Origin: Phormidesmis priestleyi BC1401
GTDB lineage: Bacteria > Cyanobacteriota > Cyanobacteriia > Leptolyngbyales > Leptolyngbyaceae
Direction of reading: 5' to 3'
DNA length: 32,818 nucleotides
NCBI RefSeq assembly: GCF_001650195.1
Contig: NZ_LXYR01000052.1
Span: 1-32,818, forward strand
Numbering within the stretch: position 1 is the first letter of the stretch; each line of letters starts with the position of its first letter. Below the pieces are notes generated by a model, which saw nothing but the letters and a program-made list of their open reading frames with translations, did no database searches and was not told where the DNA came from. A program made the translations under genes and the position numbers. This document shows positions 11,894 to 32,505 of the stretch, in pieces.

Positions 11894-11902
11894 CAATCCA
11901 AA

Positions 11903-16912: not shown

Positions 16913-17059
16913 AGTGACAACTCACACAAAATCAGATTGTTACGCTGGTCAGGATTGCCTGAGAAAAGATGAGTCCCTCAAAACTGATGAGTAAGTCCCT
17001 ATTAACAGGACGAACTATCGGAAGACTTTTATGCCCCTATCGTCTCCCGGACATTGCCG

Positions 17060-19399
17060 ATGCCCAATGTTATGCTTCCATCCCACAAGATTGCTCGTTG
17101 CATTTTGCAGGATGCTGCTTGGTTACTAGCACACTGGGCAGGTATTGATGCTCATGATCTTTGGGCTAATCTCGAATCGCCTAGTGAAGCTGAGATCGCT
17201 AAAGAAATCATCGGTTGGTCAGCTCAAACTCTAAATCCGCTTCAGCTAGTATTTGACTCTATCCACCTCAATCAAGAATCTAGCGATGTGACCCCCCGAT
17301 CTGCGCCAACCTATCGACCCGCGTGGGCGCTAGAAACGGAAAGGGAAGGCAGCGAACGCTATCCTCGCATTCCATATGCCCAAAATGCACCTTCTAATGG
17401 TCAATCGTTAGATTTACTACGCGGTAAGATCCGAGCCGCGATCGCAGATTTAGATTGGCAAAATCTAGCCCAACTCACCTTGTTTGTCGAAAAATTCGGT
17501 TCCCATCTCAGCGCTGGAGATCCTGATATTGCACTCATTGATTTAGCACGATCAACCGCCGCGATCGCTGCGGCACTCGCACAACAACCGCCCGGTGAAA
17601 AGCTGGCGCTGATCGGTGGCGATTTGATGGGGGTGCAAAAGTTCATCTACACTATCTCCTCAGAAGGAGCGCTTAAATCTCTGCGGGCACGCAGCTTTTA
17701 TTTGGAGCTAGCTGCTGAAGAGGTCGTACAGCAAATCCTAACAGAGTTGAATCTGCCCCGCACAAATGTAATTTATGCTGGAGCCAGCAAGTTTTATCTT
17801 CTAGTTGCTGCAACGGATGAGTTAGAGACCATCATCGAGCGAATTCAGAGCCAGTTTAACGAATGGTTGCTTGAAACGTTTCAACGTAAAGTCTTTTTGG
17901 CGATCGCGCTAGAGCCATTTCCCGCAGCACAGCTCAAATCTGTTTCGAGTCCTGATTCCACAACGACCCCGCTAGCTCAAATCTGGCAAAACGTGAATGA
18001 CCAGCTAACGGCTCAGGCATCCCGAAAATTTGCTGATCAGTTAGACGCACTCCTCAAAACACGAAACAGTCATCAGCCTTGTAAAGTTTGCCATCGCGAC
18101 GACGTGCCAGAGGAGAAACTACAGCGGCTTAGTAATTTTCCAGGCGAAGAGTCGGTTTTAGCGTGTGAAACCTGTCGGGAGATGTTTCAGTTGGGTAATC
18201 GCTTACCTGAAGTGAACGCATGGGTGCGATCGCCTAATCAATCCAATAGCTCAACCAAAACAGAGATTCAAGTACATCATCACTACTATCGTTCCGTTCC
18301 TCCTACCTACCAACCCGAACATGATGAGATAGTCTTCCAGATCAATAATTGGGATCTTGTCGCCTATTCTTCTAATCAGTTTGTGCCAATGCTTTTGGGA
18401 AATTATTTTAAAGAAAGCTCTGAAACTGGAGGATTCTTATCTGCGAATGAAATGGCAGAAGCGGCGAATGGAATTAAACGAGTGGGTTATCTGCGGATGG
18501 ATGTCGATCGCCTCAGTCAAATTTTCTCTAAAGGCTTGGGAAAGGGCTATACTCTGCCTCGCCTAGCTTGCCTGTCTCGACAGATGACCTACTTTTTTAA
18601 GGTTTATCTCAACAGTCTGGCGGATGCACGACAGCCGAACTTTATTGATCACTGCAATTCTCTGGGCTTTAAGCATCTACCCCATAAACCGCCTCAAGAT
18701 TCCAAAAAAGACTGCGACAAAAGAATGCGGAGAAATTTGTTGTTTATTTATGCCGGAGGCGATGATTTATTTGTCAGTGGTGCGTGGAATGAGACAGTAG
18801 AGTTTGCTTTTGATGTCTATCAAGCCTTTCGAGCATATACCGGACAGCATCCAGATATCACTCTCTCTGCGGGCGTTTGTATTGCTGGAGCCAAATTTCC
18901 GCTTTATCAAGCGGCAGACGAAGCTGGGGAGGTAGAGAAAATCGCTAAAGGAAACGGGCGCGATAGTTTCGCCACCTTTAATGCAGCCCTGAAATGGGAT
19001 GAATGGTTAGGCAACTGGAATCCAAAGGTGCTAGAGCCCGATGATTTGAATTATCTAAACTCTCCTGTCAAAGTAGACGAACCAGAACTCTTTGGAGTAT
19101 TTCCTTTTGTAGAAAAGCTCTTTGGGGAAGTCGGGCAAGGCTTTACGCGCAGTTTTGTCCGCAACTTGCTCAACACAGCCCAGATGCAAGAAGAAAAAAT
19201 TAAGGAGGCAAAAGAAAACCACCCTGACCAGGTGCAAGATATTCGATATTATTTGCACTTGCCCAAAGTTGCCTACACACTGGCGCGGCTACCAAACAAT
19301 ATTTTGGATGACTCCGATTTTCGGAAATCTCTTAAGAGTCCTTATAACGCTCCCTATTTTCGCGCGATCGCCACCTGGATCGAACTACTCAACCGCTAG
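17060..19399 (+). CDS. cas10: type III-A CRISPR Cas10/Csm1 (779 aa)
   Basis: Large subunit of the Csm complex; it makes cyclic oligoadenylate when target RNA is bound. From ATG 17060, the first palm is marked by GGDLMGVQKFIY (186-197) and SLRARSFYLEL. A zinc finger follows with C341, C344, C369 and C372 (CKVC, CETC). The second palm has RMDVDRL (479-485) and the cyclase motif GGDD (566-569). No HD dipeptide is visible in the N-terminal region, so the ssDNA nuclease seems lost. TTG at 17054 could also start it; neither has a strong ribosome site. It leads an operon with csm2-5, cas6 and the CHAT-SAVED gene. The Csm1 rather than Cmr2 identity follows from its gene partners. Confidence 0.93.
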   Translation: MPNVMLPSHKIARCILQDAAWLLAHWAGIDAHDLWANLESPSEAEIAKEIIGWSAQTLNPLQLVFDSIHLNQESSDVTPRSAPTYRPAWALETEREGSERYPRIPYAQNAPSNGQSLDLLRGKIRAAIADLDWQNLAQLTLFVEKFGSHLSAGDPDIALIDLARSTAAIAAALAQQPPGEKLALIGGDLMGVQKFIYTISSEGALKSLRARSFYLELAAEEVVQQILTELNLPRTNVIYAGASKFYLLVAATDELETIIERIQSQFNEWLLETFQRKVFLAIALEPFPAAQLKSVSSPDSTTTPLAQIWQNVNDQLTAQASRKFADQLDALLKTRNSHQPCKVCHRDDVPEEKLQRLSNFPGEESVLACETCREMFQLGNRLPEVNAWVRSPNQSNSSTKTEIQVHHHYYRSVPPTYQPEHDEIVFQINNWDLVAYSSNQFVPMLLGNYFKESSETGGFLSANEMAEAANGIKRVGYLRMDVDRLSQIFSKGLGKGYTLPRLACLSRQMTYFFKVYLNSLADARQPNFIDHCNSLGFKHLPHKPPQDSKKDCDKRMRRNLLFIYAGGDDLFVSGAWNETVEFAFDVYQAFRAYTGQHPDITLSAGVCIAGAKFPLYQAADEAGEVEKIAKGNGRDSFATFNAALKWDEWLGNWNPKVLEPDDLNYLNSPVKVDEPELFGVFPFVEKLFGEVGQGFTRSFVRNLLNTAQMQEEKIKEAKENHPDQVQDIRYYLHLPKVAYTLARLPNNILDDSDFRKSLKSPYNAPYFRAIATWIELLNR

Positions 19400-19420
19400 T
19401 CAATCTGCCATTAACAATCT

Positions 19421-19942
19421 ATGCCACCCACCGATTCAAAAGAATCTCAAAAACCCACTCCACCCAGCAAACTCACCGTGACCTCTGCTTCCAATCAATC
19501 TCGTACCAATCAATCAACCGCTCAATCTCAGAATCGCCCTGGAGACATCACAGCGACAATTATTCAACAAATTAACCAATCATCTGAAGGGTTCAGCAGC
19601 TATCCCATTCGGACGCTAGTGGAGCACGCTGAAGAATTTGGTAGTTATCTGCAACAGAACCAACTGAAAACAAACCAAGTGAGAAAGTTTCTGGATGCAG
19701 TAAATCAGATTAAGGCAGATCTGCGTGAGGATGAAGACTTCTCGAAAATTGAGACTGAAATTGTACTCCTTAAGCCTAAGTTAGCCTATGCTGCGGCACG
19801 TCAATCCTCGGTGCAAGCATTGAGCAAGGTCATGAGCGCAGCGATCGATAGAGTCCACAGCATTGATGATTTTCATCGCTTGGTGCAGTTCCTTGAATCG
19901 ACGATCGCCTATCACAAAGCTAGCGGAGGCAGAGACTCATGA
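19421..19942 (+). CDS. csm2: type III-A CRISPR small subunit Csm2 (173 aa)
   Basis: Cas11-type helical small subunit lining the target RNA in the Csm filament. The first 50 residues are S/T/Q/P-rich and probably disordered. The rest is helical, with the family pattern FGSYLQQNQLKTNQVRKFLD (about 73-92), ...LLKPKLAYAAARQ... and HRLVQFLESTIAYHKASGG at the end. It follows cas10 by 21 nt and overlaps csm3 by ATGA. The disordered N-terminal extension makes it somewhat longer than the usual 120-150 aa. Confidence 0.9.
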   Translation: MPPTDSKESQKPTPPSKLTVTSASNQSRTNQSTAQSQNRPGDITATIIQQINQSSEGFSSYPIRTLVEHAEEFGSYLQQNQLKTNQVRKFLDAVNQIKADLREDEDFSKIETEIVLLKPKLAYAAARQSSVQALSKVMSAAIDRVHSIDDFHRLVQFLESTIAYHKASGGRDS

Positions 19943-20895
19943 CTGTTGTAACAAGACCCCAGAAACCACTCGCTGGCAAAATTCGGATTGAAAGTACCCT
20001 ACTCGTCGAAACCGGACTACACATCGGCGGCGGCGGTGAAACGTTGGATATTGGAGGTTTAGACAAGCCTGTGATTCGCGATCCACTGACTCAGCAACCC
20101 TATCTACCAGGTTCGTCGATTAAAGGCAAACTGCGATCAATTCTAGAACGTCTACACAATAAGCCAGTCAACCGCAAAGGCAGCCGTGACACCTACCGCT
20201 ATGAAAGCGATGATGTTGTAGATGGCTACACTGAAATTAGTGCAAATCAGTTCGTAGCGTTTCAGGGGGCAAGTACTTGCCCAGTTAGTCGTCTCTTTGG
20301 CTCGACAGGGATTAAATGTTGGATTCCAACGAGCCACGTCACAGATGCTGTTGAATCAGACACAAAAACGCCAGAGCAGACAATCGCTGAGGTGAAGCAT
20401 ACGAAAGTGATTGGACGCAATGCCCCTGCAAGATTGATTGTGCGTGATTGTCATCTAGATCCACATTCGGCAGAAAAACTGAAGCGTGTTGACACTGGGT
20501 TATACATGACAGAGTGGAAGTTTGAAAATGGCATTGATCGCATTACATCTGCCGCAAACCCTCGGCAAGTAGAGCGCGTCCCTGCGGGTTCAGCATTCAA
20601 ATTTGAGCTAGTCTACACCATCGAGAACGAAAACCAAGTGGTTGAGGATTTGAAAAATCTAGCGATCGCACTGGCAATCTTAGAAGACGATGCCTTGGGT
20701 GGTCACGGCTCGCGCGGCTACGGCAAAATTAAGTTTCAACAAATTCAGTTCTTCTACCGCAGCCTTGATCAATACAAACTGATCGGTAAGAAGAGCGTCG
20801 ATTGGACTACACCCCTCGCCACGTTTGTCGATACCACAGCACTGCTTGGTGGCTTTGGCAGCATTGAGCAACAGTTGCCTCTGGGAGGCAACTAG
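19939..20895 (+). CDS. csm3: type III-A CRISPR Csm3 (Cas7 backbone and target RNase) (318 aa)
   Basis: Backbone RAMP that cuts target RNA every 6 nt. HIGGGGETLDIGGLDKPVIR (28-47) carries the conserved aspartate (D42, in the usual ID-x-PVI-x-DP block). YLPGSSIKGKLRSILE (55-70) is the RAMP signature, and GGHGSRGYGKI near residue 255 is the glycine-rich loop. With D42 kept, RNase activity is expected. Coupled to csm2 by ATGA; csm4 starts 1 nt after its stop. Confidence 0.94.
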   Translation: MTVVTRPQKPLAGKIRIESTLLVETGLHIGGGGETLDIGGLDKPVIRDPLTQQPYLPGSSIKGKLRSILERLHNKPVNRKGSRDTYRYESDDVVDGYTEISANQFVAFQGASTCPVSRLFGSTGIKCWIPTSHVTDAVESDTKTPEQTIAEVKHTKVIGRNAPARLIVRDCHLDPHSAEKLKRVDTGLYMTEWKFENGIDRITSAANPRQVERVPAGSAFKFELVYTIENENQVVEDLKNLAIALAILEDDALGGHGSRGYGKIKFQQIQFFYRSLDQYKLIGKKSVDWTTPLATFVDTTALLGGFGSIEQQLPLGGN

Positions 20896-20896
20896 C

Positions 20897-21943
20897 ATGA
20901 CCCACTGGAAGTTAATCAAGCTAGACTTTGGGCGAAACCCAGTCCACTTTGGTGACTTAGGCATCGGCATGGAGAAATCAGGTGAACGAGCTTACTCAGA
21001 TACGTTGTTTAGCGCCTGGGTCAGTTCTTACGCGCGGCTATTTGGTGGAGAGGCAGTGGAGCAATTATTTGCTCGATTTCCGAAGCAGGCACAATCTTCT
21101 CCGCTAGAGCCTCCTTTTCGGCTTGGTTCTACGTTTGTCTATTACAACGAAACGTATTATCTTCCTCGCCCGATCGAGCCTCCAAAAGGATATCCAGAAG
21201 ATAGTCTAGCCTTTGCAAAAGAATATAAGAAACTAACCTATTTGCCCCTGAAGATTTGGCAACGGTGGTATCAGGGAGAAGGTTTCACTGATGCAGATCG
21301 AGAAGAACTCGAACTCAAAGTGAAGCAACCAAAAACTTTCGGGAAACTTGAAGAAGCGAAAACATTTGACTACAGCAAAACGTTTCAATCACAGCGAGTT
21401 CCTAAAGTCAGCCTCGATCGCACCACTCGCGCCAGCAACTTCTACCATGTTGGCTTTGTCCAATTTCAGCCGGAAGCTGGGTTATATTTCCTGATTCACT
21501 TTCCCGAAGCTGATTCATCACTAGAAGACGAATTGAAAGCGGCGCTAGATTTCCTGGGAGATGAGGGGATAGGTGGAGAAAAGTCGAGTGGGGCCGGGCG
21601 ATTTACTGCTACTTGGCACGACTTGGACGAGGTATGGAAGAGTGTTGTTAACTTTAAGCAGTTCAACTTTCACGGTCTGATTAGCCTACTGTGGGAGCAT
21701 CCCTTTGCCTCTGAATATTTGCAAGGAGCGAGCTATGCTCTACAAGAACGAGGCGGCTGGATTGTCTCGCCTGTGTCTGGTCAGCAAGCGCGGCGACAGA
21801 CCGTGCAGATGTTTACTGAGGGTTCTGTGTTTCCGCAACCGATTAGCGGGATGTTAGCCAACGTTACACCGGGAAATTTCAAAGCACATCCCATCTATCG
21901 CAGTGGTATTAGTCTCAGCCTTCCTATTTATCTGGCATCCTGA
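20897..21943 (+). CDS. csm4: type III-A CRISPR Csm4 (Cas5 group) (348 aa)
   Basis: Caps the 5' handle end of the crRNA and joins Cas10 to the backbone. From the ATG at 20897 the N-terminal RAMP block reads PVHFGDLGIGMEKSGERAYS (about 15-34), followed by DTLFSAW, a Csm4 hallmark. GIGGEKSSGAGRF near residue 229 is the glycine-rich loop. The longer frame from 20825 only runs back into csm3. It ends 3 nt before csm5. Confidence 0.92.
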   Translation: MTHWKLIKLDFGRNPVHFGDLGIGMEKSGERAYSDTLFSAWVSSYARLFGGEAVEQLFARFPKQAQSSPLEPPFRLGSTFVYYNETYYLPRPIEPPKGYPEDSLAFAKEYKKLTYLPLKIWQRWYQGEGFTDADREELELKVKQPKTFGKLEEAKTFDYSKTFQSQRVPKVSLDRTTRASNFYHVGFVQFQPEAGLYFLIHFPEADSSLEDELKAALDFLGDEGIGGEKSSGAGRFTATWHDLDEVWKSVVNFKQFNFHGLISLLWEHPFASEYLQGASYALQERGGWIVSPVSGQQARRQTVQMFTEGSVFPQPISGMLANVTPGNFKAHPIYRSGISLSLPIYLAS

Positions 21944-21946
21944 CCT

Positions 21947-23233
21947 ATGCTTTCTTCCTCCACCTCTCTGACGAAGCCTCAGGCGCTAGATTCTTGCACG
22001 ATTCAGCTCACTAGCCCGATGTTACACATTGGTTCTGAAGTGCAGAAGCTGAGTCCGTTTGAATATGTGGCAACTTCTAAGTTTGTTTATCAACCGAATG
22101 CTGAGGTATTAGCGCGATCGCTTTATCAGCAAGGTCGATTACCAGATTATCTGGATACGATCAAGGAACGGCGATCAATCCTACCGATCCTAGAACAAGC
22201 ATTTGGTGAAGACTGGTCACAGGCGCAAGATGCTAGCGGTCAACCCATTTTTCCAAAAGTAACCCGAAGTTTGTGCTGGGCTGACTCCAAGCAGATTAGC
22301 GATCTCCGTCCTATGATTCGCAATGGCTATCGTCAACTCTACATTCCTGGCTCATCAATCAAGGGAGCAATTCGGACTGCGATCGCGTATCACCTGCTCA
22401 AAAATGCGGATCAGTTTCAAGTGCCGAAGCAGAAACGGATTAGCGCCATTGAACTTGAGCTTCAAAAGTCGATGGGCAGTCTGAGGCAGAAAGCCAAATT
22501 TGCTGATGATGCGCTATTTATGGATGCGTTGTTCAGTGACTTCCGGTTAGAGGGCGATCGCAGTAATGTGAGAACTGGACCTAACACTGATTTCATGCGA
22601 GCAATCAAGGTTACAGATTCTGAGCCGTTGATTGAGCAGAAGATTCCTCTGCCAAGCAGGAAAAATCGGTTTGAAAATCTGTCGATCACGGCTGAAGTAT
22701 TAGTTTCTAGCCGCTTTGGGGACTATCGCGCTAAATATCGAGCATCAATTTATGCTGAGTTAGCCCGCAATGTGCAGACCACGTTTACGATCACGCTTGA
22801 TCACCATCTTCTCAATCAGATGCAACATTTAGAAGGGACGAAAATTCCCTTTAAGTCTGTTGGTGATATTCTTCAGATTTGCCAAGCCTTCGCGCAAGAC
22901 CAGTGGGATGCAGAACATGACTATTGGCAGGATGTGCAAAACAATCCCAACCAGCGTGATCAGAATGGCAACAATCGCAATCTGGACACTGCTGCAATCC
23001 GCAATTTTTATGAAGCGACAACCTGCCCCTACGCGCTGCGATTGGGCTGGGGAAGCGGGATGAATGGTACAACAGTAGGCTTGTTGTTGGATGACCAATT
23101 GCGATCGCAACTCCGCGATACCTGTGGAATTAGAGCGCCTGGGTTTGAAGCTCCAAAGTCTAGACGAACAGTAGTCGGTTCCGACGGCACAATAAAATTT
23201 GTTCCAGGTTGGGTTAAATTCAAGGCTCTGTGA
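21947..23233 (+). CDS. csm5: type III-A CRISPR Csm5 (Cas7 group) (428 aa)
   Basis: Distal Cas7-like subunit of the Csm complex, involved in crRNA maturation. Starts MLSSSTSLTK; the first RAMP strand and loop are IQLTSPMLHIGSEVQKLSPF (19-38). YIPGSSIKGAIRTA lies at about 131-144, and a C-terminal glycine-rich LGWGSGMNGTTVGLLL at about 365-380. Length is a little above the usual 350-400 aa. Its TGA stop overlaps a GTG of the next frame; the cas6 ATG is at 23236. Confidence 0.92.
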   Translation: MLSSSTSLTKPQALDSCTIQLTSPMLHIGSEVQKLSPFEYVATSKFVYQPNAEVLARSLYQQGRLPDYLDTIKERRSILPILEQAFGEDWSQAQDASGQPIFPKVTRSLCWADSKQISDLRPMIRNGYRQLYIPGSSIKGAIRTAIAYHLLKNADQFQVPKQKRISAIELELQKSMGSLRQKAKFADDALFMDALFSDFRLEGDRSNVRTGPNTDFMRAIKVTDSEPLIEQKIPLPSRKNRFENLSITAEVLVSSRFGDYRAKYRASIYAELARNVQTTFTITLDHHLLNQMQHLEGTKIPFKSVGDILQICQAFAQDQWDAEHDYWQDVQNNPNQRDQNGNNRNLDTAAIRNFYEATTCPYALRLGWGSGMNGTTVGLLLDDQLRSQLRDTCGIRAPGFEAPKSRRTVVGSDGTIKFVPGWVKFKAL

Positions 23234-23235
23234 CG

Positions 23236-24030
23236 ATGCTTATCCGATCAACTTGGACATTAAAAGTAGCTGAACCAACGACGTTGCCGCGGTCGTATGG
23301 GCTGGAGTTGGTCAAGCAATTGCATCAGCGGTTAGGAATTGAAATGGGATCAGAGCAAATCCCTTCTACGACCTGCTCAGGAATTTTGGGCAATGTAACA
23401 GCATCCGGTGACTTTCTCACGTTTTATCCAGAGGAAAACTATCAACTAGCGCTCTGTGGGTTGCAGGAAAAAGCCTCGATCGCGATCGCATCTTTCGAGT
23501 TAGCGAATCATGCACTTGAATCTCGACTCGACTTGCTAGGAGCTAGGTTTCAAATTGTTGATCGAGTCGATGAAACTACCAGTTATGAAACGCTCTATCA
23601 CTTGTTAGTCGCGGCTGAACCCGAACCTACCTATCGGTTTGACCTCATATTTACCACCTCGACCGCTTTTTCTCAAAATCGCCTCCATTTACCATTGCCC
23701 GTCCCTGCTCTAATGTTTCACAGTTGGCTTGAACGCTGGAATCATTTTGCCCCCGTTTACCTAGGAAGCAGCGAACTAATCGATTATCTTGCGGCGGCTG
23801 TAGCGATATCGCGGCACAAAATCCAGACGCGCAGAGTGAGCGTTCACAGTAGCAAAATCACCGGATTCACGGGAGAAGTTTCTCTGAATATTCTATCCCG
23901 TGCTGATCCATTGCTTACCCATGTCGCAAACCTACTCATCAACTATTCCCAGTTCGCTGGAACAGGGATGAAAACCCGCTTGGGCATGGGACAGACAAAA
24001 ATAAAAATGAAGGAAAAGGATGATGAATAA
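23236..24030 (+). CDS. cas6: CRISPR pre-crRNA endoribonuclease Cas6 (264 aa)
   Basis: Processes the array transcript by cutting at the base of the repeat hairpin. It has the conserved central block LPLPVPALMFHSWLERWNHF (about 151-170) and ITGFTGEVSL. The C-terminal glycine-rich loop is FAGTGMKTRLGMGQT (about 240-254), the Cas6 signature. ATG 23236 is taken; GTG at 23230 would add two residues. It overlaps the CHAT-SAVED gene by 11 nt. A second Cas6 with an extra HTH domain lies at 26607-27725, so this one seems to belong to the effector operon. Confidence 0.92.
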   Translation: MLIRSTWTLKVAEPTTLPRSYGLELVKQLHQRLGIEMGSEQIPSTTCSGILGNVTASGDFLTFYPEENYQLALCGLQEKASIAIASFELANHALESRLDLLGARFQIVDRVDETTSYETLYHLLVAAEPEPTYRFDLIFTTSTAFSQNRLHLPLPVPALMFHSWLERWNHFAPVYLGSSELIDYLAAAVAISRHKIQTRRVSVHSSKITGFTGEVSLNILSRADPLLTHVANLLINYSQFAGTGMKTRLGMGQTKIKMKEKDDE

Positions 24031-25354
24031 CTCTGTAAAACGGATTTTGACCTTAGCAGCAAATCCTAAAGAGACGGGAAAGCTTCGCTTAGATGAAGAG
24101 GTTCGGGAGATCGATAAAGCCCTTCGACGGGCACAAAAGCGGGATCACTTTGAACTGAAATCGCGATGGGCAGTCACTCCTAGAGAACTGCAACTGGCAA
24201 TTTTAGAGGAAACTCCACAAATCATTCATTTTTGTGGGCATGGTGTTGGGAAAGATGGATTAGTACTGGAAAATGAAATAGGACAAGCAACGTTGGTAAG
24301 CACTACTGCGTTGTCAGAACTGTTCAAATTATTTGCTGACCAAGTTCAATGTGTGGTGCTCAATGCCTGCTATACAGAGGTTCAGGCTGAGGCAATCTGT
24401 CAACACATTGGTTATGTGGTTGGGATGAATCAGCCAATTGACGATCGCGCTGCGATAGAGTTTGCCTTTGGTTTTTATAGCGCACTGGGCAGCGATCGTT
24501 CCTACGACTTTGCCTATCAGTTTGGCTGTAACAGCATTCGTACAGCAGAGATTCCCCAAGCAGAGATTCCGGTGTTGAAGCAGCGATCGCTTCAGATTAC
24601 TGCTAGAGAGTCGTCCCCTCAAAATCCTCCCAGTCTTTGGATTCATGGTTTACATAAGCAGTCGTATGGTGCACCAACGGTTGAATTAGATTGGAGACTA
24701 TACTTTCTCCAAGAAGGTCGTCGTCAGAGTCCTAATGAATCGACCTGGAAAAACAAGCTCTTTCCTGATTTGGCTCAAGCGAAGCAGTTTCTTACCGATG
24801 TTCATTGGGGTGAATGTATTGACCTGCGTGCTAAATTACCGCTGCCTGCCATGCTAGCCGTAGGTGCTACTTTTCCAGAATTAGTGTACCGATTTCAGTG
24901 TGAACAAATTATTAGAAGCCAACCGTTTCTGTGGCAGTCATATACTACTCCGTCTGCAATAAAGTTTAGGGTAATGCAAAAGAGAGGTAAATCTGGAAAA
25001 CATCTGTTGATTGCTTTTGGTATCACAGGCTCTGCCTGGAAAGATGTTGTAGCTTTAGTTCAGAAGTCACCTGGAGAATTTGATGCTTTAGTCTACACAG
25101 AACCAGAAACAGGTGTTGGAGATGCTGCCATTTCTAACGCAGATGCTATTGCCTTGGCAATTCACGCAAAGGAATTGATGCGAACATATCGACAAAAGTA
25201 CAGCGCTGAATTCATTCATTTGGTTATCTTGGCACCTGCGGCATTTGCGTTATTTTTAGGGCAACGACTGAATACATTGGGCGAAGTTGTTAGCTACGAA
25301 TGGACAGCAACTGAAGGCTATCAAGCAGCAGTTAGGTTGCAAGTAGGAGGATGA
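24020..25354 (+). CDS. CHAT-SAVED fusion: predicted cyclic-oligonucleotide-activated caspase-like protease (444 aa)
   Basis: Residues about 6-185 form a CHAT (caspase-like) peptidase domain. The dyad is H74 in IIHFCGHGVG and C117 in VVLNACYTE, with the further conserved-looking VVGMNQPIDDRAAIEFAFGF. Residues about 205-442 fit a SAVED domain: DLRAKLPLPAMLAVGATFPE, KHLLIAFGITGSAWKDVV, then HLVILAPAAFALFLGQRLN and VVSYEW near the end. SAVED domains bind cyclic oligonucleotides, and SAVED-CHAT proteases are known type III CRISPR ancillary effectors, one acting in a cA3-driven protease cascade. The gene overlaps cas6 by 11 nt, so it is made with the Csm complex. No second caspase or obvious protease substrate gene is in the window. 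Confidence 0.88.
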   Translation: MMNNSVKRILTLAANPKETGKLRLDEEVREIDKALRRAQKRDHFELKSRWAVTPRELQLAILEETPQIIHFCGHGVGKDGLVLENEIGQATLVSTTALSELFKLFADQVQCVVLNACYTEVQAEAICQHIGYVVGMNQPIDDRAAIEFAFGFYSALGSDRSYDFAYQFGCNSIRTAEIPQAEIPVLKQRSLQITARESSPQNPPSLWIHGLHKQSYGAPTVELDWRLYFLQEGRRQSPNESTWKNKLFPDLAQAKQFLTDVHWGECIDLRAKLPLPAMLAVGATFPELVYRFQCEQIIRSQPFLWQSYTTPSAIKFRVMQKRGKSGKHLLIAFGITGSAWKDVVALVQKSPGEFDALVYTEPETGVGDAAISNADAIALAIHAKELMRTYRQKYSAEFIHLVILAPAAFALFLGQRLNTLGEVVSYEWTATEGYQAAVRLQVGG

Positions 25355-25454: not shown

Positions 25455-25502
25455 TTTAATCCCTGATCGGGGATTAAGCTTGCAATTTAGGTCAACGTCT
25501 TA
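25455..25502 (+). repeat. 48-bp direct repeat, copy 1
   Basis: Shares 42 of 48 bases with 26548-26595, and all six differences are transitions. The unit starts TTTAATCCCTGATCGGGGAT, holds the dyad AATCCC-GATC-GGGGATT, and continues AGCTTGCAATTTAGGTC. The two copies flank the minus-strand toxin-antitoxin cassette. It is not a copy of the CRISPR repeat at 29374-31499. Confidence 0.85.
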
Positions 25503-25538
25503 TCTTGCGCTTGGCATGGCTCTCTGCCGCAGAGCAGA

Positions 25539-26276
25539 TTAATCTTCTAGTTGCTCACTGGTCATCCGTTCGGTTAAGGGCAAATCAAACTGCGCTGCCA
25601 ATTGATCCAGCCCAGTGATGATCGTGTAAGGTGTCCGAATTCCCAATCGCTCGTAACAGCGAGATCGATAATCCGGTTTAGCTTGAAAGTTGAGAATTGA
25701 TCGCTTGAGCGGATCGATACAGCGATAGGCTGCTTCTGCTTTAGATATCGCGGCGGCGGGAAACGGAGTCATTTGCCGAAGAATGCTCAGGTCAATTAAA
25801 TCGCGGGAATCGGTTGAGGCATCGGGTCAGCGATCGCCATTGGCGAGAAGCTTTTCTGCAATTTGGTCTACCACACTCAAGCAGGGCACAGGCAATCCAG
25901 CAGGATAAATAGGGGCTTCTAGGGAAATGCGTCCCTCTGCCACAATTTCTACTTTGAGCGAAGATTCTCCCACTCGGACAACAAAGCGAACTCCATCGCG
26001 ATCGGTGCGGATTTCCTGTGGCAAGTGGATGTCACTTAGCCGATTTGGATCAAAGAGCGCGTCGTAGCCACGATCGTACAAAGCGATTCGCAATCGCGAA
26101 AATGTGGCTCCATAGGGACAGAGAAAATCAATATCGCGACTGAGGCGATACTCTCCATAGCAAAGCGAGAGCAGTGTTCTCCCACCAAAGTATGCCTCGC
26201 AGGATGCTAAAAAATTACAGTTGAGTGCCTGTAAAACTTGCAAGACCTGATTATGAATGGCATGTCTAAAGATCAT
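25539..26276 (-). pseudogene. AbiEii-like nucleotidyltransferase toxin with an in-frame TGA
   Basis: A 246-codon frame, starting at the ATG at 26276, is interrupted once by TGA at 25827-25829. The first part has the nucleotidyltransferase signature FGGRTLLSLCYGEYRLSRDI (about 30-49) followed by DFLCP, the GG...S-x-D-x-DF pattern of AbiEii/AbiGii toxins. Homologues in memory read NGDRWxDxST...SRDLIDL across the break; here it is NGDR-TGA-PDASTDSRDLIDL, so a Trp codon has become a stop. AbiEii enzymes modify tRNA or other targets and arrest growth under an antitoxin. The second part resumes in the same frame to TAA-region 25539. As read it is probably inactive unless the stop is a sequencing error. 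Confidence 0.75.
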
Positions 26277-26478
26277 TGGCTAACCAAGAATGGTATTTAT
26301 CTGCAAGATTGCGGATGAATTGTTGTTCAACTGTACTCACACCAGCCAGCACTCCACGAAGCCGCCAGTTGCGTTCATAGAGTTGTAAAACTTCCACTTC
26401 GGTCAGGTTGGCGATCGAGGGGGTTTCTCCTTGCCAGCAGAGTGACTTTAGAAAGGGAAGCTGATCGAGATGCGGCAT
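26266..26478 (-). CDS. putative antitoxin partner of the AbiEii-like gene (70 aa)
   Basis: Starts at the ATG at 26478 (MPHLDQLPFLKSLCWQGETP); a TTG at 26484 is a possible longer start. It overlaps the toxin-like gene by 11 nt, so the two are cotranslated. The protein is helical (VEVLQLYERNWRLRGVLAGV, EQQFIRNLADKYHSWL) with no DNA-binding fold I can name. Small companion genes of this kind precede AbiEii-type genes in cyanobacteria; the antitoxin role is inferred from position. Confidence 0.6.
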   Translation of the reverse strand: MPHLDQLPFLKSLCWQGETPSIANLTEVEVLQLYERNWRLRGVLAGVSTVEQQFIRNLADKYHSWLANDL

Positions 26479-26547
26479 AATCAAATGATTCTAGACCCTC
26501 TCAATCTTAGTCAGAAACGCTGAGTCATGACTCAATCGATGAAGGAG

Positions 26548-26595
26548 TTTAATCCCCGATCGGGGATTGAGCTTACAATTTAGGTCGATGTTTTA
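26548..26595 (+). repeat. 48-bp direct repeat, copy 2
   Basis: Second copy of the unit at 25455-25502, beginning TTTAATCCCCGATCGGGGAT with a perfect 18-bp dyad AATCCCCGATCGGGGATT. It ends 11 bp before the second cas6 gene, so in this place it could act as a promoter-side operator. Distance between copies is 1093 bp. Confidence 0.85.
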
Positions 26596-26606
26596 GATGC
26601 TCCGTT

Positions 26607-27725
26607 ATGCCGTCTCGATCTCGCCCCACTCCCAAATCTTCTGCCTGGACGGAGGATGCTGCCTTGGTTGGCATTACGCTCCAAGTGCAGCCGCTGCGAG
26701 ACAGTACGCTCTATCCGCAGTATATGATCGGGCTTCATGCGTGGTTTCTTCATCAAATCCAGCAGAGTGACCCTGGTCTTTCTGCGACGCTGCATGACAA
26801 TCAGGATGAGAAGCCGTTTACGATTTCTGGGTTGATTGATCCGCATGATCCAACGGCTCGATCGCTGAGACTGAGTGCAAACCAGATTTATCACTGGCAG
26901 ATTACAGCGTTTAGTCAGCCTGTAGTGCGATGGTTGAAACAATGGCTCGAACAGTTGCCCGGTGAAATTGATTTGCGAACGGCTCCGCTCAAGATTTTGG
27001 GATGGTCGATCGTGGGAGAAACGACGACTTACGAAGCTTTATTTGATCAGGCAGCGGATCGTCCGCATCAAGCCAAAGCGGTTGATTTATCGTTTTTGTC
27101 ACCGACGAGTTTTAGACGCAAGGGCAATCATTTTCCGTTGCCTGTGCCGACCAATTTGTTTCACAGCTATCTACGCCGATGGAATCAGTTTGCTCATCTC
27201 GAATATGACGCGGATGAATTTCTAGAATGGATTGATGGATCGGTGTTGATTATGCGGCATCATCTGGAGTCTGCCAAGGTGGTGGCGGGAAAGAAAGGAT
27301 CGGTGACGGGGTTTACAGGATCGATCTCACTGGGTCTAACGGTGGTGGCGCGGGAAGATGCTGAATATATTCAGCTATTCACGGTGCTGTGTTGGTTTGC
27401 GCCCTATTGTGGCACGGGGCATAAAACGACGTTTGGGTTGGGGCAGACGCGGCTGGGCTGGCGAGATGCGCCGACGACTGCTGTGTTGCCTTCGACTCAA
27501 GATCTGCTGGCACAGAGAATTAGTGAGTTGACAAGTCAGTTTTTGGCAGTGAAGAAGCGATCGGGGAGCGATCGGGCGATCACCTCTGCGGAGACATGGG
27601 CAACAATTTTGGCACGAAGAGAACTGGGAGAATCGTTGCAGGCGATCGCGACGGATTTAGAGATGAATTATGAGACGGTCAAAACCTATATCAAGCTGGC
27701 GCGGCGGCAATTAGCGAACAAATGA
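26607..27725 (+). CDS. cas6: Cas6-family protein with C-terminal HTH domain (372 aa)
   Basis: The Cas6 part covers about residues 20-290. It shares FPLPVPTNLFHSYLRRWNQF with the first Cas6, SVTGFTGSISLGL, and a C-terminal glycine-rich loop CGTGHKTTFGLGQTRLGW. Residues 324-372 add a helix-turn-helix resembling sigma region 4 or a resolvase tail (ATILARRELGESLQAIATDL, then NYETVKTYIKLARRQ). It leads the adaptation genes cas1 and cas2, 83 nt ahead of cas1. The HTH could bind DNA such as the leader or the 48-bp dyad just upstream, which is an inference. Whether both Cas6 proteins cut the same repeat cannot be read from sequence. Confidence 0.9.
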   Translation: MPSRSRPTPKSSAWTEDAALVGITLQVQPLRDSTLYPQYMIGLHAWFLHQIQQSDPGLSATLHDNQDEKPFTISGLIDPHDPTARSLRLSANQIYHWQITAFSQPVVRWLKQWLEQLPGEIDLRTAPLKILGWSIVGETTTYEALFDQAADRPHQAKAVDLSFLSPTSFRRKGNHFPLPVPTNLFHSYLRRWNQFAHLEYDADEFLEWIDGSVLIMRHHLESAKVVAGKKGSVTGFTGSISLGLTVVAREDAEYIQLFTVLCWFAPYCGTGHKTTFGLGQTRLGWRDAPTTAVLPSTQDLLAQRISELTSQFLAVKKRSGSDRAITSAETWATILARRELGESLQAIATDLEMNYETVKTYIKLARRQLANK

Positions 27726-27808: not shown

Positions 27809-28849
27809 ATGTCTTCACTTTATCTGGTCCACCAAGGCGCGACTCTGCGGAAGGAACAGGAACGGTTTGTAGTTGATGAGCCTAAACCAAAGATCAAGGC
27901 TGACGATTTGCTGTCAGAGGGGCTGCTTTCTCCAGTGCGAGTGCCTATCAAAGAAGTTGAGCAAGTGCTGGTGTTTGGCAACGTTCATCTCAGCACGGCA
28001 GCAGTTTCGGCTTGTTTGGAGGAGCAAGTTCCGGTTGTGTTTTTGTCTCAGAGTGGGCGCTATAAGGGACATTTGTGGAGTGCAGAGCGCTGCAATTTAG
28101 CAGTGGAGTCAGCCCAGTTTGATCGCCGTCATGATCAAATCTTTCAGCTAGAGATGGCACGATCAATGGTTTGGGGCAAGTTGATGAATTCTCGTCAGTT
28201 GTTGCTGAGGCTCAATCGCAAGCGGCAAGTGATGGAGGTGGAGAGGGCAATTGGGGGCATTGATCGAGATCTTGAATCGGTGGCAACTGTGGCTCAAATA
28301 GAATCACTACGGGGCTATGAGGGTGCAGCAGCGGCGCGATATTTTCCAGCATTGGGGCGGTTGTTGATCAATCCGGGGTTTAGCTTAACGGATCGGAGTC
28401 GCCGCCCGCCCAAAGATGCGGTGAATAGTCTGCTGAGTTTTGGATATACGCTGTTGTTTAACAACGTGCTGAGTTTGCTGCTGACGGAGGGGTTGAATCC
28501 TTATTTGGGTAATTTGCATCGCTCCGATCGTCATGATCCGCATCTGGCGTTTGATTTGATGGAGGAGTTTCGTTCTCCGGTGGTGGATACGTTGGTGGTG
28601 ACGTTGATTAATCAGCAGGTGTTGAAACCGGAGGATTTTAGTGACGTGAGTGAGGGGGGGATTTATCTGACAAATGCAGCGCGGCGGTTGTTTTTGCGGC
28701 GGTTTGAGGAGCGGATGAGTGAATTGGTGGCTCATCCGAATGTGCAGGGGCAGGTGTCTTATCGACGGGCGATGCAGTTGCAGATTCGGCAATATCAGCG
28801 GTGTTTGTTAGATGGGGTCGAGTATGAGTCGTTTTTGAGGGCGGTGTAG
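27809..28849 (+). CDS. cas1: CRISPR integrase Cas1 (346 aa)
   Basis: Catalytic subunit of the spacer-integration complex. Metal ligands expected from the family are present: E171 in LRGYEGAAAARYF, H237 in GNLHRSD, and the DLMEEFR block at 249-255. The N-terminal beta domain reads SLYLVHQGATLRKEQERFVV. It carries a segment (about 24-44, KPKPKIKADDLLSEGLLSP) that appears to be an insertion relative to short Cas1 proteins. No reverse transcriptase is fused. cas2 follows after 4 nt. Confidence 0.95.
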   Translation: MSSLYLVHQGATLRKEQERFVVDEPKPKIKADDLLSEGLLSPVRVPIKEVEQVLVFGNVHLSTAAVSACLEEQVPVVFLSQSGRYKGHLWSAERCNLAVESAQFDRRHDQIFQLEMARSMVWGKLMNSRQLLLRLNRKRQVMEVERAIGGIDRDLESVATVAQIESLRGYEGAAAARYFPALGRLLINPGFSLTDRSRRPPKDAVNSLLSFGYTLLFNNVLSLLLTEGLNPYLGNLHRSDRHDPHLAFDLMEEFRSPVVDTLVVTLINQQVLKPEDFSDVSEGGIYLTNAARRLFLRRFEERMSELVAHPNVQGQVSYRRAMQLQIRQYQRCLLDGVEYESFLRAV

Positions 28850-28853
28850 GGCG

Positions 28854-29129
28854 ATGCTGACTTTAGTGGTGTATGACATTGCGGATAGTAAGCGCCGTTT
28901 GAAACTATCTCATTTCTTGGAGGGTCAGGGGCGACGGGTGCAGGAAAGCGTGTTTGAGTGTTTCGTGTCGCTGGATAAGCTGAAGAAGCTGCATGAGCAG
29001 GTGCAGCGGCGAATCGAGCCGTCGGAGGATAGTGTTCGGTTTTACTGGATTCCGGCGGATGCGGTGCCGAGGGTGTTGACGATCGGGAGTGCGCCACCCC
29101 AACCACCGCCCAAGGTGTATATTATCTGA
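28854..29129 (+). CDS. cas2: CRISPR Cas2 (91 aa)
   Basis: Structural partner of Cas1 in spacer acquisition. It shows the ferredoxin-like N-terminus LTLVVYDIADSKRRLKLSHF with D8, the second-strand VQESVFECFV, and the closing RFYWIPADAVPRVLTIG. Length is standard. The gene ends in TGA at 29127-29129, and the leader begins at once. Confidence 0.95.
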   Translation: MLTLVVYDIADSKRRLKLSHFLEGQGRRVQESVFECFVSLDKLKKLHEQVQRRIEPSEDSVRFYWIPADAVPRVLTIGSAPPQPPPKVYII

Positions 29130-29373
29130 AAGTTACTTGACGTGTTGAAAGTGCTGAGTGGTATGGTGTGTGGATGGGTGTATCGACACACCTCGACCGA
29201 TCCTTGAAAACCAAATACTGTCGTTGACCTATGTCGATGCCTGAATCCGTGGGCATCTGAGCGTAGGGAGGAAAATGTTTTTTAAGAGAAAAAGCCTTTT
29301 CTTTAGTTGAAATTTTTACCTCTGTCGATTTCTGGCTGAGGAGCTTTACCCAGTCAGGCTTTCGACGGACGCG
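29130..29373 (+). promoter_or_regulatory. CRISPR leader
   Basis: The 244 bases between cas2 and the first repeat are AT-rich in their second half (ATGTTTTTTAAGAGAAAAAG near 29274). No gene is present. The side of the leader is inferred from cas1-cas2 position and from the repeat's 3' end, which gives an ACGGAAAC handle typical of type III crRNAs. The array promoter should be here, but no sure -35/-10 pair is seen. Confidence 0.6.
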
Positions 29374-31499
29374 ATTTCATGACCTCTTCCCCGCAAGGGG
29401 ACGGAAACTCCTTAGCGTTTCGTGGGGGAAGTCGATCGATCCCTCTTATTTCATGACCTCTTCCCCGCAAGGGGACGGAAACCTCCCTCATACCAAGCTC
29501 TCGTCTCAGTTCGTGAAGGATTGAGATTTCATGACCTCTTCCCCGCAAGGGGACGGAAACACTTGATTCGTCGGCACCACTAGCCTTTGGCAGATTGATT
29601 TCATGACCTCTTCCCCGCAAGGGGACGGAAACCGGAACTGCCCAGCCGCTTCAACGATCGAGTTGGCTCATTTCATGACCTCTTCCCCGCAAGGGGACGG
29701 AAACACCACGATCGCGGTATCGGTTGCAGTCGCGGGGGTAGATGATTTCATGACCTCTTCCCCGCAAGGGGACGGAAACTTCATTAGTCCACCTCGATGC
29801 CGTATTGCTTGCAGAATCTGATTTCATGACCTCTTCCCCGCAAGGGGACGGAAACTCGTCCACTTCGTTTCCCCAATCATCGTAATACGTTGTCATATTT
29901 CATGACCTCTTCCCCGCAAGGGGACGGAAACTTACCATCTTTAGTTGTAAAGTGGTTCATTTTGAAATGAAGCGATTATTTCATGACCTCTTCCCCGCAA
30001 GGGGACGGAAACTTAGACGGTTGCGACTTCAGGAGTCTTAGCAGCTTTATTTCATGACCTCTTCCCCGCAAGGGGACGGAAACGCATAGTTTTCAGCCAT
30101 AATCACAGGCAAAGATTCACCAGCCGATTTCATGACCTCTTCCCCGCAAGGGGACGGAAACTGCTTCTGATTTCTTGCTTGATGTCTTCAATGTCCATAT
30201 TTCATGACCTCTTCCCCGCAAGGGGACGGAAACAATAAAGACAATGCCGCCACAAATGACCCAAGAACAGATTTCATGACCTCTTCCCCGCAAGGGGACG
30301 GAAACTTTTGCCATTCGTTGCCGAGCACTTGGGGTGTCCTTCGTTGAATTTCATGACCTCTTCCCCGCAAGGGGACGGAAACAACGGCAGCTTGGGAATC
30401 GATCGGTAGGTTGCATCCGCTATTTCATGACCTCTTCCCCGCAAGGGGACGGAAACTCTCTCATAATTTGAAGCCATCGATCGTAGGCTTCGATTTCATG
30501 ACCTCTTCCCCGCAAGGGGACGGAAACATCCAGTCCCGAATCTGTGAGAGCGAGGCGTTGTCTTATTTCATGACCTCTTCCCCGCAAGGGGACGGAAACA
30601 AGTATCTCAGTGCTTTAATTAACGTATTTACATCACCAATTATTTCATGACCTCTTCCCCGCAAGGGGACGGAAACACAATCTTGACGCTACTAGAGCGG
30701 TGCCGTCCGATCGTATTTCATGACCTCTTCCCCGCAAGGGGACGGAAACATTCAATCCTGTAAGAATTTGGCAATCGTCGTCGTTGCCATTTCATGACCT
30801 CTTCCCCGCAAGGGGACGGAAACGGGTTCACTGACAAGGCGATTGATTTGGCTCTAGGAGGTATTTCATGACCTCTTCCCCGCAAGGGGACGGAAACAAT
30901 ACTGCCTTAAGCTGTGCAGAGACACTATCCTCTGAATTTCATGACCTCTTCCCCGCAAGGGGACGGAAACATAAACTCTAGAGAAGCCGATCGCCTGTAA
31001 GCCTCAACAATTTCATGACCTCTTCCCCGCAAGGGGACGGAAACTCAATTAACTCATCTTGCGTCGCGAATGCGGGCGTGATCGGATTTCATGACCTCTT
31101 CCCCGCAAGGGGACGGAAACTTTCGTCGTCCGTCAGCCAACCGATGCTCACAAGGTATTCGATGATTTCATGACCTCTTCCCCGCAAGGGGACGGAAACT
31201 CGTACTCCGCGATCGGGTTAAACGCTGGCTCTTTTATTTCATGACCTCTTCCCCGCAAGGGGACGGAAACATCGCGCTATCCCATGCTGAGATGAGTTTG
31301 TTTGGCTCATTTATTTCATGACCTCTTCCCCGCAAGGGGACGGAAACTCAATAGCCTCTACTGCTTTGACTTCCTCCATAGTGCGGAGATTTCATGACCT
31401 CTTCCCCGCAAGGGGACGGAAACCCTGGTTCCCCGATCGCCTCCAGTTGATGCCGCACTGCCATATTTCATGACCTCTTCCCCGCAAGGGGACGGAAAC
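29374..31499 (+). CRISPR. CRISPR array, 29 repeats and 28 spacers
   Basis: The 35-bp repeat starts ATTTCATGACCTCTTCCCCG and ends CAAGGGGACGGAAAC. All 29 copies are identical, the last included. Spacers are 36-46 bp. The repeat holds a short hairpin TCCCC-GCAA-GGGGA with a GNRA loop, a Cas6 target; cutting 3' of it leaves the 8-nt handle ACGGAAAC, close to the III-A handle ACGAGAAC of Staphylococcus. Transcription is thus plus-strand, away from cas2. Nine of 28 spacers contain CGATCG, the HIP1 core. No spacer match within the window was noticed by eye. Confidence 0.98.
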
Positions 31500-31740
31500 A
31501 ATTTCAGCTAATGTCGAGTTGGTTGCGTCACCAAGATTACTTGTCTAAGAAGAGAGCGGATGATTGATCTGTATGAGGAAAAGGTAGGTCGGATGGAGAG
31601 GGAAAACCGTGCAACAACGAGTCAAACATCCGCTTCCTGTTGAATGTGATATCCCCTGCTACTCACCGAGTCGCCATCCGCTGCCGTCGGCGTTGTAAAG
31701 CTTCAGCGTTATAATTCCCAAAGCTTTTACACAACACCCT

Positions 31741-32505
31741 ATGGACTGGCTCCCCCTCCTCGACCCAACCCACCTCTTCCACCTCGCCCAAACCCCGATC
31801 GCGCCTCCCAAAACTCCAGAAGTCGAACTCCTCCGCAAACAGCTTGACTTCATCACCCAAGCCAACAAAGACCTCAACGAAAGCTTCAAAACCTTCGTGG
31901 ACACCATGAAATTTGTCCTGATTATTTTTGGCTTTTTGGGAGGCGCGATCGCTTTCATCTTCGGCAAAAATCTAGACGATGCCAAAAAAGTCGCCCGCGA
32001 CGCTATCCGTCAAGAAGTCGAGGGTCACGTCACAGCGCTCGTGCAAACCGAAGTCAACAACCTAAAACGCACCCTCCAAAGAGAGCGCATCATCGGCGAC
32101 ACGATCGTCCACTACTACCTTCCCAACGCCATTCAACCCCCCAACGAATTTAAGCTCCTCACCGTCCGAGGCTTCCGAGACGTGCGCTTTCTGCGCGATC
32201 GACCACAACTTCACAGTGAAACCGCCAACATTGTCATCCTTGACCTAGAGAATTGGGTCACACCCAACCAGCAAAGATTTTCTAGCTTAGTCAACCCCGA
32301 TCGAGATACCCAAGCAAAACCCCAAATCGATGCGCTGCTCAAAATCCTGCCCTCTTCAACCGTACTAGTCGTGTACGTCCGATCGACTGTGAGCTATCTC
32401 TACACGGTCTCCAGCAGTTGCTACATTACACCCGCCAACAATCCCGTCACCCTACTCGGCATGGTCGCCGATGCTGCCTACGTTGTTGCAGGCATTCTCA
32501 CTTAA
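31741..32505 (+). CDS. single-pass membrane protein, possible CRISPR-linked effector (254 aa)
   Basis: Order of parts: an N-terminal segment with a helix (27-55), one membrane helix at about 57-75 (MKFVLIIFGFLGGAIAFIF), a charged helix likely to form a coiled coil (78-115), and a soluble alpha/beta domain (about 118-254). That domain has strands such as NIVILDLENW and TVLVVYVRS, and a closing PANNPVTLLGMVADAAYVVA. The plan resembles membrane-anchored ligand-sensing effectors such as CARF-membrane fusions, but I recognise no CARF or SAVED motif. It starts 241 bp after the array, preceded by TATAAT at 31710-31715. Function unknown; link to CRISPR is by position. Confidence 0.6.
   Translation: MDWLPLLDPTHLFHLAQTPIAPPKTPEVELLRKQLDFITQANKDLNESFKTFVDTMKFVLIIFGFLGGAIAFIFGKNLDDAKKVARDAIRQEVEGHVTALVQTEVNNLKRTLQRERIIGDTIVHYYLPNAIQPPNEFKLLTVRGFRDVRFLRDRPQLHSETANIVILDLENWVTPNQQRFSSLVNPDRDTQAKPQIDALLKILPSSTVLVVYVRSTVSYLYTVSSSCYITPANNPVTLLGMVADAAYVVAGILT

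What the first reader, a model, noticed from the sequence alone, without database searches (positions are those of the whole stretch)
25455..26595. Toxin-antitoxin cassette bracketed by 48-bp direct repeats inside the CRISPR locus
The minus-strand AbiEii-like pair lies between the effector operon and the adaptation genes, with direct repeats 42/48 identical on each side. All six mismatches are transitions. It looks like a module inserted by recombination or duplication at a regulatory site, or an addiction unit protecting the CRISPR locus.
Basis: partly seen in the sequence, partly recalled or inferred. Interest (0 to 1): 0.62.

Follow-up and report, generated by a model that had tools for sequence, protein, structure and literature searches.

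The report
Copied cas6 promoter around toxin pair
The paired repeats are two copies of the probable switch region in front of a CRISPR RNA-cutting gene, a region that resembles a CRISPR repeat in many cyanobacteria, and the toxin pair caught between them carries a stop inside its toxin and is probably a passenger rather than a guard.

Summary
In detail: 25455-25502 and 26548-26595 are 42/48 identical, six transitions, around a minus-strand AbiEi/AbiEii pair. The unit occurs twice in its genome; its 36-bp core is found in 1 of 386 genomes of the phylum, its own. It is no dispersed repeat.

It is the upstream region of cas6-HTH (26607), probably its promoter. Many orthologues carry the same design: a CRISPR-repeat-like dyad 11-12 bp before a -10-like box. 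The dyad is upstream in 51 of 80 named loci versus 128 of 4000 control windows; 41 of 56 strict cores there have the box, against 10 of 844 cores elsewhere. Only 1 of 20 more divergent homologues has it.

The right copy sits where a promoter should; the left has a weaker -10-like box and faces the toxin gene's end. No second copy was seen in 57 other loci.

The toxin gene has an in-frame TGA before motif IV; 29 other AbiE loci lack the core. Probably a duplicated promoter around a passenger toxin pair; addiction is not supported. Promoter activity and Cas6-HTH binding are inferred.

The parts
25455..25502 (+). Left copy of the 48-bp unit: dyad 25458-25475 (one mismatch), -10-like box TGCAAT 25481-25486; probably a decayed extra copy
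   Evidence: box position read
26548..26595 (+). Right copy of the unit: perfect 18-bp dyad 26551-26568, -10-like TACAAT 26574-26579; putative promoter/operator of cas6-HTH, whose ATG is at 26607
   Evidence: the element recurs upstream of relatives
25539..26276 (-). AbiEii-like toxin gene, split by an in-frame TGA at 25829-25827 (codon 150); motif IV (RDLID, residues 158-162) lies after the stop
   Evidence: motif definition from PMC3985639 section 28
26266..26484 (-). 72-aa AbiEi-like antitoxin gene, open
26521..26534 (.). Perfect 14-bp palindrome TGAGTCATGACTCA between the antitoxin gene and the right unit; function unknown, not seen upstream of 29 other AbiE pairs
26607..27725 (+). Cas6 with C-terminal helix-turn-helix (predicted helices at residues 297-370, about 27495-27716)
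24020..25354 (+). CHAT-SAVED effector gene, last gene before the left copy
17054..24030 (+). Type III-A operon: cas10, csm2, csm3, csm4, csm5, cas6
27809..29129 (+). cas1 and cas2, downstream of cas6-HTH
29373..31500 (+). CRISPR array, 29 repeats with core TCCCCGCAAGGGGACGGAAAC

Best explanation
The 48-bp unit is the promoter/operator region of cas6-HTH (and probably of cas1-cas2 behind it). It consists of a CRISPR-repeat-like dyad (AATCCCCGATCGGGGATT) over the -35 area, then a -10-like box and the expected start region. The most likely operation is that the helix-turn-helix tail of Cas6-HTH, or another regulator, binds the dyad and tunes transcription of the crRNA-processing and adaptation genes. 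The right copy is the working one. The left copy is an extra, weakened duplicate left when the slot between the effector genes and cas6-HTH was rearranged. That slot now holds an AbiE-type pair as cargo, whose toxin is truncated in this assembly. Shown: the repeats, their uniqueness, the recurring element in relatives, the truncation, the absence of the element beside other AbiE pairs. Inferred: promoter activity, binding by Cas6-HTH, the decay of the left copy, and the route of the duplication.
For: Among 80 named Cas6-HTH loci, 51 have a dyad of this form (stem 5 bp or more) within 200 nt upstream, against 128 of 4000 control windows from the same loci with CRISPR arrays kept in (22 with one dyad, 106 with two or more). 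For the strict core CCCC-N4-GGGGA, 41 of 56 last cores before cas6-HTH have a TA..[AG]T box 11-12 nt on, against 10 of 844 other cores, which are largely array repeats. A first count gave 56 of 90 loci against 42 of 3891 windows; it dropped 109 control windows with two or more dyads. In that count the best box lay at distance 12 in 32 and 11 in 7 of 50. In 40 elements (37 distinct) the T and A closing TCCCC-N4-GGGGA are invariant though not demanded by the search, and a sequence near AYGGAAAY follows, like the local crRNA handle. In the window the core occurs only in CRISPR repeats and the right copy. The unit is unique to this locus. Shared sequence after the dyad (19 of 24) marks a promoter-region copy; the best array repeats in seven other loci share 12 of 24 or fewer. 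The core is absent from 29 of 29 other AbiE loci within about 1.5 kb. Six same-family AbiE contexts show no match to the window's cas proteins and no flank homology. Toxin motif IV lies after the stop. Loci L060, L074, L077 have a csm operon, other ORFs in the slot, then the element and cas6-HTH, without AbiEii.
Against: The element is not universal: not recognised in 34 of 90 loci, nor in 19 of 20 more divergent Cas6 homologues (42-53% identical), 19 of the 20 keeping the HTH part (three of the 20 are also among the 90). The window's dyad-to-box distance is 8, not 11-12, and its handle is degenerate. The simple sigma-70 scan calls no promoter at either copy. The weaker left box is judged from recalled -10 rules; the searches in relatives demanded TA in the box, so they cannot show that the A is conserved. 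AbiE pairs lie 6.6 and about 22 kb (G245), 21 kb (G127) and 65 kb (G153) from cas6-HTH in three genomes. No expression or binding data exist. The truncation may be an assembly error.
Confidence: 0.66

Rival explanations
1. A module inserted by recombination at the promoter: DNA bearing one unit plus the AbiE pair (a circle, or a transformed fragment) recombined with the resident unit, leaving one copy on each side.
For: The structure unit-X-unit is what a single crossover would leave, with donor/recipient divergence explaining 6/48 (inference). GC3 changes across the cassette: csm genes 0.44-0.47, CHAT-SAVED 0.36, AbiE pair 0.46-0.47, cas6-HTH/cas1/cas2 0.53-0.65.
Against: No donor arrangement found: 0 of 29 AbiE loci outside the window (of 37 places listed) carry the CCCC-N4-GGGGA core within about 1.5 kb, six same-family AbiE contexts show no flank homology, no plasmid DNA match to the cassette.
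Confidence: 0.3
2. An addiction device: the pair is held silent by the CRISPR system (CreTA-like, or by antisense RNA from the left promoter copy) and punishes loss of the locus.
For: CRISPR-repeat-like copies flank a toxin pair, as degenerate repeats flank creA in CreTA (PMC8501985 abstract and section 14). The left copy points into the antisense of the toxin genes. Two further cas loci in the genome have I-D-like gene order by eye.
Against: Copies are 1,045 bp apart, not flanking a short guide. No significant complementarity of the stretches after each dyad to the toxin promoter area: longest 8 nt, reached by 42 of 500 shuffles. The toxin is truncated before motif IV. The left -10-like box is TGCAAT. 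No AbiEii match in 80 named Cas6-HTH loci.
Confidence: 0.06
3. An RNA-level element: the hairpin in a read-through transcript is cut by Cas6, trimming the csm/CHAT-SAVED mRNA end or freeing the cas6-HTH mRNA.
For: Both copies fold as a 9-bp stem on the + strand, and the two stem differences keep pairing through G-U. In relatives a crRNA-handle-like sequence near AYGGAAAY follows the stem.
Against: A -10-like box 11-12 nt downstream in 41 of 56 strict cores places the hairpin before the expected start site, hence outside that mRNA. Handle degenerate in the window.
Confidence: 0.15
4. A CRISPR-array relic or spacer-like integration by Cas1-Cas2 that duplicated a repeat around about 1 kb of DNA.
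For: Repeat-like element, cas1/cas2 next door; in L056, L099, L103 and L105 an array lies just upstream of cas6-HTH and a repeat precedes the promoter-like box.
Against: Wrong register: the duplicated stretch starts 3 nt before AATCCCC and runs 27 nt past the dyad, while the local repeat has about 14-15 nt before and 7-8 nt after its TCCCC-N4-GGGGA core. Best array repeats in seven other loci share 12 of 24 or fewer tail bases; the two copies share 19 of 24. The insert is far longer than a spacer.
Confidence: 0.04

Closest known systems
AbiE (type IV AbiEi/AbiEii toxin-antitoxin)
   Same: Bicistronic AbiEi-AbiEii order, AbiEii NTase family profile
   Different: Antitoxin only 72 aa, little room for the N-terminal winged HTH plus C-terminal domain described for AbiEi (PMC3985639 passages); toxin truncated before motif IV
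CreTA, CRISPR-regulated toxin-antitoxin (PMC8501985, abstract and section 14; PMC10097628, search listing only)
   Same: CRISPR-repeat-like sequences next to a toxin gene at a cas locus
   Different: CreTA repeats flank a short guide RNA and the toxin is an RNA; here 1 kb of protein genes, no guide complementarity above shuffles, and a type III-A locus
Standalone CRISPR repeat-like regulatory elements near cas genes (Shmakov et al. 2023, recalled, not read; one search found its title phrase in seven papers, passages not viewed)
   Same: Solo repeat-like element upstream of a cas gene
   Different: Here tied at near-fixed spacing to a -10-like box in front of a Cas6-HTH gene, so likely a DNA operator rather than a guide RNA
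Type III CRISPR locus with a SAVED-CHAT effector (PMC11229360, passages)
   Same: csm operon plus CHAT and SAVED domains in one protein
   Different: Not tested further; domain order here is CHAT then SAVED

Membership tests
AbiE toxin-antitoxin | AbiEii NTase profile over the gene | tested here: met
   Pfam AbiEii 2.9e-21 and PADLOC AbiEii 2.7e-61, read through the TGA
AbiE toxin-antitoxin | Intact toxin with motifs I-IV | tested here: not met
   In-frame TGA at codon 150; RDLID (motif IV) after it; mutation of motifs I-IV abolished toxicity in the studied AbiEii. Holds if the assembly is right
AbiE toxin-antitoxin | AbiEi antitoxin upstream in the same operon | tested here: met
   AbiEi 26484-26266 overlaps the toxin start; PADLOC 6.8e-17
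AbiE toxin-antitoxin | Antitoxin with winged HTH binding inverted repeats | tested here: inconclusive
   72-aa antitoxin; a 14-bp palindrome lies upstream, not shared by 29 other pairs
CreTA | Repeat-like sequences (usually two) flanking a short guide | tested here: not met
   Copies 1,045 bp apart
CreTA | Guide complementary to the toxin promoter | tested here: not met
   No match beyond shuffle level
CreTA | Type I effector doing the repression | tested here: inconclusive
   Two other cas loci in the genome, with their own cas6 genes and I-D-like gene order by eye, have other repeats; none in this locus
CRISPR-repeat-like cas promoter element | Dyad with the core of the local repeat upstream of a cas gene | tested here: met
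   TCCCC-N4-GGGGA shared by the right copy and the array repeat
CRISPR-repeat-like cas promoter element | 11-12 bp spacing to the -10-like box and AYGGAAAY-like handle | tested here: not met
   Window spacing 8, handle ATTGAGCT
CRISPR-repeat-like cas promoter element | Binding by Cas6-HTH and effect on transcription | not testable with these tools
   Needs binding and reporter assays
Transposon insertion with target-site duplication | Short target duplication, terminal inverted repeats, transposase | tested here: not met
   48-bp copies; no inverted repeats at the insert ends other than the dyads themselves; no transposase-sized ORF inside

The most novel reading that the evidence does not exclude
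In many cyanobacteria the crRNA-processing enzyme Cas6-HTH controls its own gene through a DNA operator that copies the hairpin of its RNA substrate, so that unprocessed CRISPR RNA competes with the operator and sets Cas6 (and here Cas1-Cas2) levels; in this genome that operator was duplicated around a toxin pair.
Probability: 0.17. Interest if true: 0.75.

Novelty: new variant of a known kind. Interest (0 to 1): 0.5.

Why it matters
How cas6 and adaptation genes are switched in cyanobacteria is, to my knowledge, poorly understood. A repeat-like element, usually 11-12 bp before a -10-like box in front of a Cas6 that carries its own probable DNA-binding domain, gives a direct, cheap test of substrate-coupled control of crRNA processing. 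The duplication around the toxin pair is by itself a single-genome curiosity. The lesson for genome reading is that repeats bracketing a toxin pair at a cas locus need not mean an addiction module.

Tried and rejected
Dispersed repeat: rejected. Viral copies of the dyad: no exact match in viral contigs. Transposon: no inverted ends besides the dyads, no transposase-sized ORF. Extension of homology beyond 48 bp: not above shuffles in 60-nt flanks, 438 and 436 of 1000 reach the observed score; a gapped alignment does run on downstream to an AATCTTCT match in nearly the same register, which lies in the toxin's own end. CreA-like guide: no. Other duplicated units: 0 of 57 other loci, within the DNA held. 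Correlation of HTH loss with element loss: not testable; the one locus of 20 that aligned without the HTH part (L193) runs to its contig end. Fold of the HTH: the domain alone matched nothing in PDB sequences at E 0.1, and the fold comparison covered only residues 17-287, so it was not tested further. Literature: searches listed no title or abstract start on a repeat-like cas6-HTH promoter; the listed papers were mostly not opened, and most subscription papers are not held. Plasmid records: no DNA match to the cassette; AbiEii protein hits in 78 records, all under 60% identity, best 51.4%. An earlier count gave the 14-bp palindrome as 26524-26537; the right place is 26521-26534. The control dropped 109 windows with two or more dyads and did not exclude the upstream regions themselves; one search repeats it without these faults.

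Full report
What is there. They differ at six positions, all transitions. In the 5.55-Mb draft genome the unit occurs twice and no more; in 386 genomes of the phylum its 36-bp core with up to three mismatches is found only here. The dyad with at most one mismatch occurs in one other of 42 genomes of the order. Between the copies are a 72-aa AbiEi-like antitoxin gene and an AbiEii-like toxin gene on the minus strand.

Surroundings. The locus is type III-A: cas10, csm2-5 and a cas6, then a CHAT-SAVED effector gene ending at 25354; to the right, cas6 with a C-terminal helix-turn-helix (cas6-HTH), cas1, cas2 and a 29-repeat array. The AlphaFold model of Cas6-HTH (mean pLDDT 78.7) gives a Cas6 fold at residues 17-287 (best Z 24.5, 244 aligned, rmsd 2.6, Cas6 TTHB231) and four helices at 297-370. 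The HTH assignment rests on a PADLOC HTH profile (4.3e-21) and a Sigma70_r4_2 match below its cut-off. An actin/ParM-like gene at 10815-11681, also below cut-offs, hints at a plasmid.

The unit is the cas6-HTH upstream element. Upstream of Cas6-HTH orthologues I found a recurrent element (one search left minus-strand loci unturned, corrected). In 90 loci (80 named, the window, eight of the same family, and L014) a CCC..GGG dyad with a stem of at least 5 bp occurs within 200 nt in 56, against 42 of 3891 control windows. Two of the 56 (L066, L097) are in-gene hits by eye, though one search shows a dyad further upstream in both; L045/L163 and L122/L167 look like the same loci counted twice. That control had dropped 109 windows with two or more dyads, so I repeated it: 51 of 80 named loci against 128 of 4000 control windows (22 with one dyad, 106 with two or more, mainly arrays). 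The box is the stronger sign: 41 of 56 last strict cores before cas6-HTH have TA..[AG]T 11-12 nt on, against 10 of 844 other cores. With a looser box distance, 41 of 80 loci have dyad and box near cas6-HTH, and of 21 further hits in 1.417 Mb, by eye, 18 are array repeats, two are the cas6-HTH dyad read on the other strand, and one (L063) is neither. Forty such elements (37 distinct) share TCCCC-N4-GGGGA with invariant closing T and A, then a sequence near AYGGAAAY, the same order as hairpin and handle of the local CRISPR repeats. In the window the core occurs only in the CRISPR repeats and in the right copy.

Limits of that claim. In 20 more divergent Cas6 homologues only one (L203) has the element (three of these 20 are also among the 90). 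In 34 of 90 loci it was not recognised; several of these show degenerate forms by eye. The window's own element is atypical: distance 8 and a degenerate handle. A simple sigma-70 scan finds no promoter at either copy. So 'promoter/operator' rests on recurring anatomy and position, not on activity data.

Two copies. The right copy ends 11 nt before the cas6-HTH start codon and has a perfect dyad and TACAAT. The left copy begins 100 nt after the CHAT-SAVED stop, has a broken dyad and TGCAAT, a weaker -10 by recalled rules, and points into the 3' end of the toxin gene. Beyond the 48 bp, flanking similarity does not exceed shuffles. In 57 other loci no second copy was seen within the DNA held; seven show array repeats, whose tails agree at 12 of 24 or fewer in the best hits, against 19 of 24 here. 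Hence this is a copy of the promoter-like region rather than an array relic, and its register does not fit spacer integration. GC3 changes across the cassette, compatible with a junction of two modules.

The toxin pair. The toxin gene has a TGA at codon 150, where 29 of 29 aligned relatives (L148 doubtful) have an aromatic residue; motif IV follows the stop. In the studied AbiEii, mutation of motifs I-IV abolished toxicity (PMC3985639, section 28 and passages). AbiEii relatives were found in 34 of 386 genomes and 8 of 42 of the order, own genome included. Of 37 places besides the window, 29 had loci, and none has the CCCC-N4-GGGGA core within about 1.5 kb. Six same-family contexts (3 to 19.5 kb) have no match to the window's cas proteins and no flank homology. 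Against me: in G245 two AbiE pairs lie about 6.6 and 22 kb from cas6-HTH, in G127 one at about 21 kb, in G153 one at about 65 kb, so AbiE and CRISPR share neighbourhoods there, though not this position. None of 80 named Cas6-HTH loci shows AbiEii within the DNA held. In L060, L074 and L077 the slot between the csm operon and cas6-HTH holds other ORFs, so it seems to be a variable slot.

How it most likely works. Cas6-HTH, or another regulator, binds the dyad at the right copy and sets expression of cas6-HTH, cas1 and cas2 (inferred). The left copy and the AbiE pair are remnants of a rearrangement (inferred). AbiE can stabilise plasmids (PMC3985639, abstract and passages), so an earlier role in plasmid maintenance is possible; with the toxin truncated it is doubtful now.

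Compared with what is known. The toxin pair files as a degraded AbiE. The arrangement recalls CreTA (PMC8501985 abstract and section 14), but fails the features tested here (spacing, guide complementarity). The repeat-like element belongs with standalone CRISPR-repeat-like regulators near cas genes (Shmakov et al. 2023, recalled, not read), as a variant tied to a -10-like box and a Cas6-HTH gene. I found no description of it in the listings of the held library.

Noticed in passing
window 31741-32505 and about 32586-32660: A 254-aa ORF after the array has a 68% homologue in G406 (L194), where a Cas6-HTH gene follows it, and a 32% homologue convergent with a CHAT-SAVED/type III locus in G191 (L230). 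In the window it is followed by what looks by eye like a truncated second cas6 start; tblastn did not confirm that.
   Followed up: partly
L056, L060, L075, L099, L103, L105 upstream of Cas6-HTH: In these loci array-type repeats lie directly before cas6-HTH and the last one occupies the place of the promoter dyad, suggesting the element arose from a terminal repeat.
   Followed up: partly
window 10815-11681: Actin/ParM-like gene (ALP_N, MreB-like_C, both below the curated cut-off), hinting that the contig is a plasmid; no terminal overlap of the contig was found.
   Followed up: partly
own genome C51 (L235) and C54 (L236): Two further CRISPR loci, each with its own cas6 and I-D-like gene order by eye, with different repeats; the C54 repeat shares AATCCCTGA with the left copy of the unit.
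   Followed up: partly
window 26521-26534: Perfect 14-bp palindrome TGAGTCATGACTCA between the antitoxin gene and the right unit, not found upstream of 29 other AbiE pairs.
   Followed up: partly
window 11898-12225: 165-bp tandem duplication, 98% identical.
   Followed up: no
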